64,000 nt of DNA from Peronospora farinosa (Eukaryota > Oomycota > Peronosporomycetes > Peronosporales > Peronosporaceae): the NCBI GenBank assembly GCA_947646735.1, contig CANTFK010000848.1, forward strand, positions 1-64,000, read 5' to 3'. The notes beneath the pieces are model-generated. The model made no database searches, was not told the origin of the DNA, and was given only the letters and a program-made list of their open reading frames with translations. A program made the position numbers and the translations under genes. Position 1 is the stretch's first letter; every line of letters begins with the position of its first letter. This document shows, piece after piece, positions 58,080 through 61,007 of the stretch.

Positions 58080-60151
58080 AAGCTGCAGAAAAGAACTATC
58101 CAGTTCACGACAAAGAGCTACTTGCGATGAAGTATGCCCTGGTCAAATTCAGAGTTCATCTGCTGGGCTCAAAGCCTTTTGTGATCTATACCGATCATGC
58201 GTCGTTACGCACTGCGACTCAGTCGCCGCATCTCTCGCAGAGAATGGCCAGATGGCTGTCATTCTTTGCCGAATATAACTTCGAGGTGAAATATAAGCCG
58301 GGCAAGCAAAATGCTTTGGCTGATGCGTTGTCACGCAGACCTGATTATGAGCTTGCTCATGTGACGATGTTGTCGTCTTCTATCACCGATCTCATTCGTA
58401 CGGCGTATGCTAAAGATGATCACTGTATAGCGTTGCTACATGCTCTTGGCAGTGAGGAGTTTAAAGACTCGAACATTAAATTGTCGGCACGATTGCGTGC
58501 AAGCCTCCCTCGATATTCTATCGATGAGGGGCTGTTGTACTATCGTACAGATGTAGCGGATCCTCCGCGTATTGTAGTTCCTCATGACGAGGACCTGAAA
58601 CATCGTATCCTCTATGAGGTACATGACACCGCCATCGGTGGTCATTTGGGTCGTGAAAAGATCTATGGGGCAGTATGCCAAAGTTATTGGTGGCCCAAAT
58701 TATACAAATGGGTGAGCACATATGTGCGTACGTGTGAAATGTGTCAGCGGGTGAAACCCTCGCCCCATTCGGCAGCGCCGCTGGCTAGTTTGCCTATTCC
58801 CACTGGGTGCTGGGAGTCCATTAGTATGGACTTTGTATTTGGCCTACCGAAAGATTCGCATGGCAATACAGGAATTGTGGTCTTTGTTGACCGTTTGAGC
58901 AAGATGGCTCACTTAGCGGCTGTGCCAGATTCGATCGATGGTGTGGGTACAGCGGAGCTGTTTATCGATCGGGTGTTTCGCCAACATGGCTTGCCAGTGG
59001 CAATTGTTTCTGATCGTGATCCTCGTTTTACGAGTAAATTTTGGAAGTCCGTCTTCCAGGTGCTGGGCACCCGTTTGGACATGTCCACGGCGGATCATCC
59101 GCAGACCGATGGTCAAACCGAACGCGTAAATCGCGTTGTTGAAGATATCCTACGCAGCGTTTGTGCTGAAACGCCTAAGCGTTGGAGCTCTATGCTCCCT
59201 GTAGTTGAGTTTGCACTCAATAATTCCGTGCACGCCTCCACCGGCTACACTCCGTTCTATGTCAATGGTCTCACACACCCACGCGTTCCGTTAACGCTAC
59301 CACCGAGTGGTTCAGGGCTTGGTGAGGGAGAGGTTGCCGATCGGCTTGCTGATGTCAGCCCTAATACTGTTAGGAAACAGGTAAATGCGTTTCTCGCAAC
59401 GCGACTAAATGTCTTACGACATGTGCAAGACGCAATGGCTGATAGTCAAGATAAACAAAAGGAATATGCAGATGCGAAAGGCAGAGCTTGTATTAATGAT
59501 TATGAGGTCGGAGAGCAAGTATTACTTAATGCTAAAAACCTACCTACCAATGTAGTATCCGCTGTCTTTAAGACGAAGTTGCGTCCGCGCTTTATCGGAC
59601 CCTTTAAGGTCATTGCCAAGAAAGGCACAGCGTATACGCTTAACTTGCCGCGCAAATTGCGTACACATCCTGTGTTCTATGTCGCCATGCTAAAACCTTA
59701 TCGGGATCCATCCCAAATAGACGCTAAGGCGCTCGCGCCGAGCCCATTGGCATTGTCGCGGGACGAAGCATCTGCACCAACAAGTCAAGTTGAACCTGCA
59801 TTCGGGTCCGACTCTCTTCCAGGGACTCCAGCCGGGAGTTCATCGTCTGCCTCTCCTCACGAAGGGTCCGCACCTCCTGAACAAGCTCGGCATGAGCTTG
59901 TTCCGATACACCGACCTCCTCCTCCTTTGCTCGATGCGCAGGGGAACCTGCAGTTCCATGTGGAACGTCTACTGCAGAAGCGTCGCCGCCATGGTCAAAA
60001 CCAGTATCTGGTGAAATGGCGGGGTTATCCCGAATCATGGAATTCATGGGAGTTTGAGACTCCCCTTCGGCAGGACTGCCCATATGCCGTGGACGTTTTT
60101 GAGCGTCGTGCGCAGGGTCTGCCTGTTGGCGCTGACGCTTCTAACCAGTAA
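58067..60151 (+). CDS. pol: Gypsy pol, second part (RNase H, integrase, chromodomain)
   Basis: Continues pol in the next frame. RNase H ends at LADALSRRPDYE. The integrase has an HHCC zinc site (HDTAIGGHLGRE ... CEMC) and the DDE core: Asp in SMDFVFGLP, Asp in VSDRDPRFTS and Glu in TDGQTERVNRVVE. A Ser/Pro-rich linker follows, then a chromodomain, FHVERLLQKRR to YLVKWRGYPESWNSWE, which in chromoviruses steers integration to chosen chromatin. All active-site residues are present. The final 430 bases are also covered by an open antisense frame. There is no natural start at 58067; this part is expressed only as a continuation of pol. Confidence 0.92.
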   Translation, partial: SRQLKAAEKNYPVHDKELLAMKYALVKFRVHLLGSKPFVIYTDHASLRTATQSPHLSQRMARWLSFFAEYNFEVKYKPGKQNALADALSRRPDYELAHVTMLSSSITDLIRTAYAKDDHCIALLHALGSEEFKDSNIKLSARLRASLPRYSIDEGLLYYRTDVADPPRIVVPHDEDLKHRILYEVHDTAIGGHLGREKIYGAVCQSYWWPKLYKWVSTYVRTCEMCQRVKPSPHSAAPLASLPIPTGCWESISMDFVFGLPKDSHGNTGIVVFVDRLSKMAHLAAVPDSIDGVGTAELFIDRVFRQHGLPVAIVSDRDPRFTSKFWKSVFQVLGTRLDMSTADHPQTDGQTERVNRVVEDILRSVCAETPKRWSSMLPVVEFALNNSVHASTGYTPFYVNGLTHPRVPLTLPPSGSGLGEGEVADRLADVSPNTVRKQVNAFLATRLNVLRHVQDAMADSQDKQKEYADAKGRACINDYEVGEQVLLNAKNLPTNVVSAVFKTKLRPRFIGPFKVIAKKGTAYTLNLPRKLRTHPVFYVAMLKPYRDPSQIDAKALAPSPLALSRDEASAPTSQVEPAFGSDSLPGTPAGSSSSASPHEGSAPPEQARHELVPIHRPPPPLLDAQGNLQFHVERLLQKRRRHGQNQYLVKWRGYPESWNSWEFETPLRQDCPYAVDVFERRAQGLPVGADASNQ

Positions 60152-61007
60152 TGGTGAGGGTAGGCGGTTTAGCGGCCTCGGGCTGTCGTGAACTCGCGGC
60201 TACAGGGGTAGCCGAAACATTGGGCTGCTGGGCAGCAGGCGCATAATGCGTTCGTTGGGATTTCAATTTTCCCCGGGCCTTCAATTTAGCGTAATCATAA
60301 CGCATCTTCCGCTCAAGTCGGATATCTGCCACATCGGCGCTTGCCCGTAGGGCCCAGATGCTGCTTAAACGTCGCGCATAATGCGCCCAGCGGCTGAAAG
60401 CCGTGTCTTCTTCGTCCTCGGTTTCCCCCGCGAACAGAAGGATGGGAACACCCTTCATCGGAGGAACTGGCGCACCGCGCACTTGCCTATTAAGGCGTGC
60501 CAAGTATTGGCTTTGAGTAGTGATATGGGGCTCCAGATATCGTTGTCGAAGTGCCGTGCGTGTGGCAACATCCTCAGGAGAAATGGCCTCAGGCCCAATG
60601 GTCCAACCAGAAAGGGAATGCCCAGATGCTTCCTTTAGGCGTTCTTCTACCGTAGGTGGCTTGAACCTGTACTGTCGGTGATCCTTCAGCCGCGTCATGT
60701 TCTTCGTTCGGCGCTTGGCGCCTTCCTCTTGGTCGATGGACCGCTGTTGCTGCTCGTCGAGTGGATTGGTAGCCGTTACCGTTGAGGATACGTCAGGCGG
60801 GTCACGTAACGCTGTTAGCGCATCTGCTGCACCACGTTCAGGGAACGGATTCGGTGCCTGACGAGTGTCATCTTCACCCGTGAGGGTGGCTAAAGGGGAC
60901 CCATCGGGTCCCACAAAGACGGTGTCACTTTCGTAATCAACCGCTTCTTCAAGGTCGTCCTCAATGAGGTCCCTAAGAGTCTGTGACTCACTGCCGGGAG
61001 GCGTCAT
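59724..61007 (-). CDS. Antisense open frame of the Gypsy element, acidic/basic/leucine-zipper, one internal TAG
   Basis: Read on the minus strand from an ATG at 61007, 112 bp inside the 3' LTR. The first section, 61007 to the TAG at 60141-60143, is 288 residues; beyond that single TAG the same frame remains open for a further 138 codons to a TAG at 59724. The N-terminus is acidic (LIEDDLEEAVDYESD), the middle is rich in Arg/Lys (about RWAHYARRLSSIWALRA and RLERKMRYDYAKLKARGK), and the C-terminal part (59766-59885) has hydrophobic residues at every seventh position for six heptads, L-L-M-L-M-L, with V, L, L, L at most of the paired positions. On the sense strand the zipper region is a disordered Ser/Pro linker of pol. 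I recognise no family. The layout recalls antisense bZIP regulators of some complex retroviruses, but that is only an analogy. Expression, and whether TAG is read through or is a mutation, are unknown. Confidence 0.5.

What the first reader, a model, noticed from the sequence alone, without database searches (positions are those of the whole stretch)
59724..61007. Young Gypsy element carries a long antisense frame predicting an acidic/basic/leucine-zipper protein
Between pol and the 3' LTR the element has about 970 bp that code for nothing on the sense strand, but the antisense strand is open from an ATG at 61007. After one TAG (60141) the same frame stays open to 59724, 428 codons in all. The last part forms a six-heptad leucine zipper (59766-59885) exactly where the sense protein is a disordered Ser/Pro linker, so the antisense frame may be the one under selection. 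Acidic start, basic middle and C-terminal zipper, encoded antisense from next to the 3' LTR, parallels antisense bZIP regulators in some retroviruses and antisense genes in a few plant retrotransposons. I know of none in oomycetes. The single TAG may mean readthrough, two proteins, or damage to this copy.
Basis: partly seen in the sequence, partly recalled or inferred. Interest (0 to 1): 0.9.

Follow-up and report, generated by a model that had tools for sequence, protein, structure and literature searches.

The report
Antisense gene in oomycete Gypsy retrotransposons
A jumping element of a downy mildew carries a conserved gene on its opposite strand, next to its 3' end; relatives of the predicted protein occur in Phytophthora and other downy mildews, and its tail is predicted to form a coiled coil opposite a loose part of the element's main polyprotein.

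Summary
The minus-strand frame from ATG 61007 to 59724 encodes a 427-residue protein in other copies of this young Ty3/Gypsy element. The TAG at 60141 is private: 0 of 69 other copies examined has a stop there, and 38 of 69 have no internal stop. In the antisense-only part dN/dS is 0.25, like pol (0.27). In the zipper the antisense frame is constrained (0.31), the pol frame not (1.56); in the chromodomain it is the reverse (2.82, 0.09). Three searches found 145 homologues, the named ones from Phytophthora, Peronospora and Hyaloperonospora, none characterised. AlphaFold predicts an ordered domain (81-250), a mostly disordered stretch opposite the chromodomain, and a 46-residue C-terminal helix. 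It is not a bZIP. Antisense genes in this position are known in plants and a fungus; my searches listed none in oomycetes. Transcription and function are untested. Most likely it is a nuclear coiled-coil accessory protein acting on the element's expression or integration (mechanism about 0.4).

The parts
53653..54282 (+). 5' LTR; target-site duplication CAGAA at 53648-53652
   Evidence: BLAST of the two LTRs, 2 mismatches and 8 gap bases over 639 columns; ends and duplication read directly
54337..55344 (+). gag
   Evidence: Pfam Retrotrans_gag and Ty3_capsid
55431..58079 (+). pol, first open part (protease, reverse transcriptase, start of RNase H)
   Evidence: Pfam
58127..60151 (+). pol, second open part (RNase H end, integrase, chromodomain); pol is interrupted between the two parts in this copy
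   Evidence: Pfam
59955..60110 (+). chromodomain; here the sense frame is the constrained one
   Evidence: Chromo 4.1e-12; dN/dS sense 0.09, antisense 2.82
59724..61007 (-). antisense gene, 427 residues in other copies; interrupted by one TAG in this copy
60141..60143 (-). premature TAG, private to this copy
   Evidence: 0 of 69 other copies has a stop there
60777..61007 (-). acidic, predicted disordered N-terminus, residues 1-77
60258..60767 (-). predicted ordered domain, residues 81-250, without a Pfam match or a telling fold match
   Evidence: 10-residue blocks of pLDDT 69-93; domain alone, mean pLDDT 84.4
60264..60398 (-). best conserved core, residues 204-248
   Evidence: dN/dS 0.13
59916..60251 (-). 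mostly disordered stretch, residues 253-364, with basic patches; residues 300-351 lie opposite the chromodomain
59766..59903 (-). C-terminal coiled-coil helix, residues 369-414, opposite the Ser/Pro linker of pol
   Evidence: pLDDT 92-96 in the blocks 371-410; for 59766-59885 (dN/dS antisense 0.31, sense 1.56)
59724..60151 (.). tail-to-tail overlap of the antisense gene and pol, 428 b
61008..61118 (.). leader between the antisense ATG and the 3' LTR (holds a purine-rich run beside the LTR)
   Evidence: sequence
61119..61756 (+). 3' LTR; CAGAA at 61757-61761

Best explanation
It is a true accessory gene of a Ty3/Gypsy element with a chromodomain, coded antisense between pol and the 3' LTR and overlapping the 3' end of pol tail to tail. 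Shown: protein-level purifying selection, homologues across Phytophthora and downy mildews, and a switch of selection from one strand to the other inside the overlap. Predicted: the order of domains. Inferred: it is transcribed from a promoter in or beside the 3' LTR, and the protein enters the nucleus through its basic patches, dimerises or oligomerises by its C-terminal coil, and uses its 81-250 domain to bind a partner (DNA, chromatin or the element's own integrase or RNA), so tuning the element's expression or placement. The two strands share the overlap by complementarity of order: the folded chromodomain lies opposite the mostly disordered stretch of the antisense protein, and the coil lies opposite the Ser/Pro linker of pol.
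For: Private TAG and open frames. Third-position excess on internal branches, antisense-only part: 51/33/148 at codon positions 1/2/3. Permutation test: synonymous 463 of 968 against 285.8 expected, z 13.0. dN/dS 0.25, core 0.13, zipper 0.31 against 1.56 in the pol frame; the antisense frame has the lowest value of the six frames in the antisense-only part and in the zipper. In four diverged copies (L072-L075) zipper identity is 0.75, 0.62, 0.70, 0.59 antisense against 0.51, 0.39, 0.54, 0.31 sense, and the chromodomain is the reverse in all four. Homologues. A heptad run in the tail of 50 of 53 homologues of 380 residues or more. In 18 of 18 homologues that I picked, antisense residue changes keep the chromodomain residue encodable on the other strand more often than random changes (0.59-0.93 against 0.32-0.42). 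Structure prediction.
Against: No transcript or peptide data were available. No oomycete initiator pattern was found upstream of the ATG. Openness of the overlap alone has an 8.6% chance. The deficit of nonsense changes is small (29 against 35.4; zipper 6 against 9.7). Over the whole linker 59724-59954 neither frame stands out (antisense z 0.6, sense z -0.1), and 59886-59954, which codes the first residues of the coil helix, is constrained in the pol frame (6/23/1). Internal-branch counts in the zipper alone are not significant (19/17/27, p 0.26). With the nearest stop-free pairs the zipper signal is weak (antisense z 2.0, sense z -0.8). The 40-codon zipper gives wide intervals (0.21-0.67; sense 0.78-4.09), and plus frame 2, which shares third positions, is also low there (0.53). 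The function is inferred; the basic patches lie partly opposite constrained pol codons, so their conservation is ambiguous. Pfam, PDB and fold comparisons give no functional hint.
Confidence: 0.85

Rival explanations
1. The protein is real but is a particle or transport factor (for example an import, assembly or integration helper) and not a regulator of expression.
For: Same structure prediction. The gene is kept across copies and genera.
Against: Nothing specific; basic patches and an acidic N-terminus lean weakly to a nuclear role.
Confidence: 0.3
2. The antisense transcript, not the protein, is what matters; it would form double-stranded RNA with pol.
For: The 428 b overlap would pair with pol RNA.
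Against: Selection follows codons: third-position excess and dN/dS 0.25 in the antisense frame.
Confidence: 0.04
3. A spurious frame, kept open by base composition or by codon choice in pol.
For: The overlap stays open in 8.6% of synonymous recodings.
Against: Two thirds of the gene lie outside pol; selection tests and homologues in other genera.
Confidence: 0.01
4. The TAG is used: readthrough, or two separate proteins.
For: Frame open on both sides of it.
Against: 0 of 69 other copies has a stop there; full-length homologues run through.
Confidence: 0.01
5. A host gene was captured once by the element and is a passenger.
For: No similarity to a known domain was found.
Against: Homologues in at least three genera, with the coil coded inside the pol overlap in this family; whether any homologue is a host gene was not tested.
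Confidence: 0.05

Closest known systems
Antisense additional ORFs between pol and 3' LTR of plant Gypsy elements (Grande gene23, RIRE2, Retand; PMC7264820 section 5 and passages, PMC11963269 abstract and passages)
   Same: Position, orientation, presence in most copies, conservation across species, function unknown; Grande gene23 is nuclear and transcribed antisense (PMC7264820, passages); some such ORFs match SMC domains (PvRetro13, Retand; both papers, passages)
   Different: No TRP28 (PF04195) match in my Pfam scans; Retand is a non-chromovirus lineage with a pol-LTR region of 2,933-6,566 b; here the region is 967 b and the gene overlaps the chromodomain end of pol
brtn of Boty-like elements of Botrytis (Zhao et al. 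2011, seen only as cited in PMC7264820 and PMC8365987)
   Same: Antisense gene beside the 3' LTR in a non-plant, filamentous host
   Different: Fungus, not oomycete; its sequence was not compared here
HBZ of HTLV-1 and APH-2/3/4 (PMC10186651, passages)
   Same: Coded antisense next to the 3' LTR; HBZ has an N-terminal activation domain and a C-terminal bZIP; APH proteins lack a bZIP, and APH-3 and APH-4 still suppress 5' LTR transcription
   Different: No bZIP basic region next to the coil here; no homology shown; transcription and targets unknown
Chronos elements of oomycetes (PMC5348765, passages)
   Same: Oomycete Ty3/Gypsy with a chromodomain
   Different: The terms antisense, opposite strand and additional ORF do not occur in the paper's main text; whether this element belongs to Chronos was not tested

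Membership tests
Ty3/Gypsy LTR retrotransposon with chromodomain | Reverse transcriptase, integrase downstream of it, chromodomain at the pol end | tested here: met
Ty3/Gypsy LTR retrotransposon with chromodomain | Paired LTRs with target-site duplication | tested here: met
   and sequence
[quoted passage not shown]
   (69 of the 135 other match rows aligned; the frame is free of internal stops in 38 of 69)
Antisense accessory gene between pol and 3' LTR (aORF-3R kind) | Conservation comparable to the element's other proteins | tested here: met
   0.25 against 0.27 for pol
Antisense accessory gene between pol and 3' LTR (aORF-3R kind) | Antisense transcript | not testable with these tools
   no RNA data
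Retand TRP28 (PF04195) proteins | PF04195 domain | tested here: not met
   Pfam scans do not list it; structural relationship not tested
bZIP / HBZ-like regulators | Basic region contiguous with the zipper (N-x7-R/K-x9-L; motif recalled) | tested here: not met
   2 of 146 proteins, both at residue 167, not at the coil
bZIP / HBZ-like regulators | C-terminal leucine-zipper-like coiled coil | tested here: met
   by prediction:
bZIP / HBZ-like regulators | Nuclear, dimerises with cellular bZIP factors, acts on LTR transcription | not testable with these tools
   needs experiment

The most novel reading that the evidence does not exclude
A family-wide antisense gene of oomycete Gypsy elements in which the two strands have partitioned one overlap: each strand codes a folded module opposite the other strand's disordered stretch, and this arrangement predates the split of Phytophthora and the downy mildews. 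The product, with a domain of no recognised fold and a coiled coil, is a trans-acting regulator of the element, working like HBZ without being a bZIP.
Probability: 0.35. Interest if true: 0.85.

Novelty: new variant of a known kind. Interest (0 to 1): 0.68.

Why it matters
Antisense accessory genes are known from retroviruses, some plant elements and a fungal element, and outside retroviruses their role is open. As far as my searches go this adds the oomycetes, with a protein family of its own, and a clear natural case of overlapping antisense genes with a measurable switch of selection between strands. The proteins sit in public databases of many Phytophthora and downy mildew species as uncharacterised; a named family would correct annotation and give a testable candidate regulator of element activity.

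Tried and rejected

Limits: only 69 of the 135 non-window match rows were aligned, the highest-ranking ones; counts are lower bounds. The alignment is anchored on the window copy and ignores insertions. All-pairs means and random pairs (sets 1 and 2) are not phylogenetically independent. Each protein search scored about 8000 candidates, so absence outside Peronosporaceae is not proven. Host: homologue P0001 at 95% is from Peronospora effusa; that the window is P. effusa or a near relative is inference. The DNA context of homologues in other species was not seen; only the own genome was. In one search L071 was left out of the count because its zipper was only partly aligned (antisense 0.80, sense 0.75; chromodomain 0.54 and 0.70). 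Paper searches show titles and abstracts of capped lists: one search listed 20 of 609, 7 of 7, 15 of 38, 12 of 309, 15 of 95, 8 of 197, 3 of 3, 8 of 15, 1 of 1.

Full report
What is there. The window holds a young Ty3/Gypsy element from 53653 to 61756. Its LTRs differ by 2 mismatches and 8 gap bases over 639 columns and it is flanked by a 5-base duplication CAGAA (read). Gag, protease, reverse transcriptase, RNase H, integrase and a chromodomain are recognised on the plus strand. Pol ends at 60151. The next 967 b up to the 3' LTR hold one sense frame of 85 aa and no other of 80 aa or more.

The TAG. A search of the own genome (46.85 Mb, 274 contigs) with the 288-residue part gave 136 matches, a lower bound; most of the best matches have an open run of 443 codons against 304 for the window copy. 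I aligned the 69 highest-ranking of the 135 non-window match rows. None of the 69 has a stop at the window's TAG. 38 of 69 have no internal stop in the anchored frame, 23 of 29 among the closest. The final stop is kept in 69 of 69, as TAG in 47 and TAA in 22; the start is ATG in 65, GTG in 3 (neighbouring copies on C5) and ACG in 1. So the family codes a 427-residue protein, and the TAG is damage to this copy. Copies with an uninterrupted antisense frame exist.

Selection on the antisense-only part. Changes counted by parsimony on a tree of the 70 copies fall on antisense codon positions 1/2/3 as 51/33/148 on internal branches and 250/197/432 on terminal branches for 60152-61007. In 35 disjoint nearest pairs, 463 of 968 changes are synonymous against 285.8 expected from relocating the same changes (z 13.0); the pol control gives z 13.2 in its own frame. 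Mean pairwise dN/dS is 0.25, against 0.27 for pol 58727-59723, and 0.13 for residues 204-248. Of the six frames of this part the antisense ORF frame has the lowest pN/pS, 0.28 (bootstrap 0.22-0.37); the next is plus frame 2 with 0.41, which shares third positions with it.

The overlap. Antisense positions 1, 2, 3 face pol positions 1, 3, 2, so the two frames can be told apart. In the chromodomain (59955-60110) internal changes are 7/47/4, the mark of pol constraint; in the zipper (59766-59885) they are 19/17/27 (not significant alone, p 0.26), with 48/37/69 on terminal branches. The stretch between them, 59886-59954, follows pol (6/23/1). dN/dS in the zipper is 0.31 antisense and 1.56 in the pol frame; in the chromodomain it is 2.82 and 0.09. 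The zipper intervals are wide: antisense 0.38 (0.21-0.67), pol 1.51 (0.78-4.09) in the bootstrap version. The permutation test gives antisense z +2.8 and sense z -2.9 in the zipper over all copies, but z 0.6 and -0.1 over the whole linker 59724-59954. With 38 stop-free copies the zipper gives z 2.0 and -0.8 in nearest pairs, and 6.6 and -2.5, 5.8 and -1.7 in two sets of random pairs, which are not independent of the tree. In four further diverged copies, L072-L075, antisense identity in the zipper exceeds sense identity in 4 of 4, and the reverse holds in the chromodomain in 4 of 4 (a fifth, L071, was only partly aligned in the zipper and is left out).

Results that count against over-reading. 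Random synonymous recoding leaves the antisense overlap open in 1725 of 20000 trials, so openness there proves little. Nonsense changes are only slightly below expectation. The antisense residues opposite the chromodomain are not constrained as a protein. The basic patches lie partly opposite the pol tail, so their conservation may come from pol.

Relatives. Three protein searches found homologues in Peronospora effusa, P. matthiolae, P. destructor, P. farinosa, Hyaloperonospora arabidopsidis, H. brassicae, Phytophthora sojae, P. palmivora, P. ramorum, P. fragariaefolia, P. nicotianae, P. cactorum and P. cinnamomi, and on unnamed contigs; 145 are held besides the query (146 proteins). Those that bear a name are called unnamed, uncharacterised or hypothetical. 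None of the named ones falls outside Peronosporaceae, within the limits of the search. The coil is longer by seven residues, one heptad, in several relatives than in this family, and 50 of 53 homologues of 380 residues or more have a heptad run in their tail that at most 5 of 100 shuffles reach. Similarity to the relative P0006 runs on past this family's final stop. For 18 homologues that I chose, Phytophthora ones among them, changed antisense residues leave the chromodomain residue encodable on the other strand in 0.59-0.93 of the codons touched, against 0.32-0.42 for random changes. This suggests, without their DNA having been seen, that the overlap with a chromodomain is shared by Phytophthora and the downy mildews.

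Structure. AlphaFold2 on the P. effusa homologue P0001 with 46 others (mean pLDDT 65.3, pTM 0.41) predicts low confidence, read as disorder, at 1-77 and most of 253-364, an ordered domain at about 81-250, and a helix at 369-414 with pLDDT above 90 in most of it. The domain alone, residues 75-252 read from the window and aligned with 52 homologues, gives mean pLDDT 84.4 and pTM 0.67, though the five models vary from 57.3 to 84.4. Residues 300-351, opposite the chromodomain, are mostly below pLDDT 50; the coil lies opposite the Ser/Pro linker of pol. Each strand thus seems to fold where the other is loose; that the pol linker is disordered is judged from its composition and was not predicted. 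No Pfam family and no telling structural match was found.

Is it HBZ-like? It shares position and strand and a C-terminal coil with HBZ, and its acidic start could serve as an activation domain (PMC10186651, passages; the last point is inference). It lacks a basic region joined to the coil and so is not a bZIP. It may work like HBZ or like the APH proteins, which lack a bZIP (same paper); nothing here shows it.

Known kind. Antisense genes between pol and the 3' LTR are described in maize Grande, rice RIRE2, Silene Retand, bean PvRetro13 and the Boty element of Botrytis and Sclerotinia (PMC7264820, section 5 and passages; PMC11963269, abstract and passages; PMC8365987, passages). The paper on oomycete retrotransposons with chromodomains (PMC5348765) has no occurrence of antisense, opposite strand or additional ORF in its main text. 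The listings show no oomycete case; most are capped, and the library holds only open-licence papers. I rate it a new variant of a known kind.

Mechanism. Shown: a conserved protein-coding gene; predicted: a folded domain and a coil. Inferred: antisense transcription from in or near the 3' LTR, nuclear entry, oligomerisation, and action on the element's expression or integration. I put about 0.95 on the gene, about 0.4 on a regulatory nuclear role, about 0.3 on a helper role in particles or integration. The figure of 0.85 given for the best explanation is for the gene and its architecture.

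Noticed in passing
L071 (G000:C58:175100-178100), antisense ORF at 1254-2543 minus: A lone, diverged copy (best other match in the genome 55%, among the candidates scored): the antisense frame is open for 430 codons while the pol tail opposite has stops and upstream pol is missing, beside a fragment resembling an MCM helicase (recalled by eye). Possible retention of the antisense gene alone; equivocal.
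   Followed up: partly
55970-56542: 87-base tandem repeats (29-residue units; five overlapping 225-base copies at 87-base spacing) in the pol spacer between protease and reverse transcriptase.
   Followed up: no
58079-58127: Pol of this copy is interrupted within RNase H, so the copy is damaged on both strands.
   Followed up: no
L026, L048, L051 (contig C5, about 458-467 kb): Three neighbouring copies share a GTG in place of the start and the same stop at codon 387, so they probably arose by duplication of a decayed copy.
   Followed up: no
L076, L077, L078: Copies listed with 4 to 7 TGA stops; base-change spectra do not look like RIP; a frame slip is a likely cause, not checked.
   Followed up: partly
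62094-62901: Remains of another Gypsy pol to the right of the element (judged from the translation).
   Followed up: no
59724: Similarity to the relative P0006 continues beyond this family's final stop, so this family's protein seems shortened at its C-terminus.
   Followed up: partly
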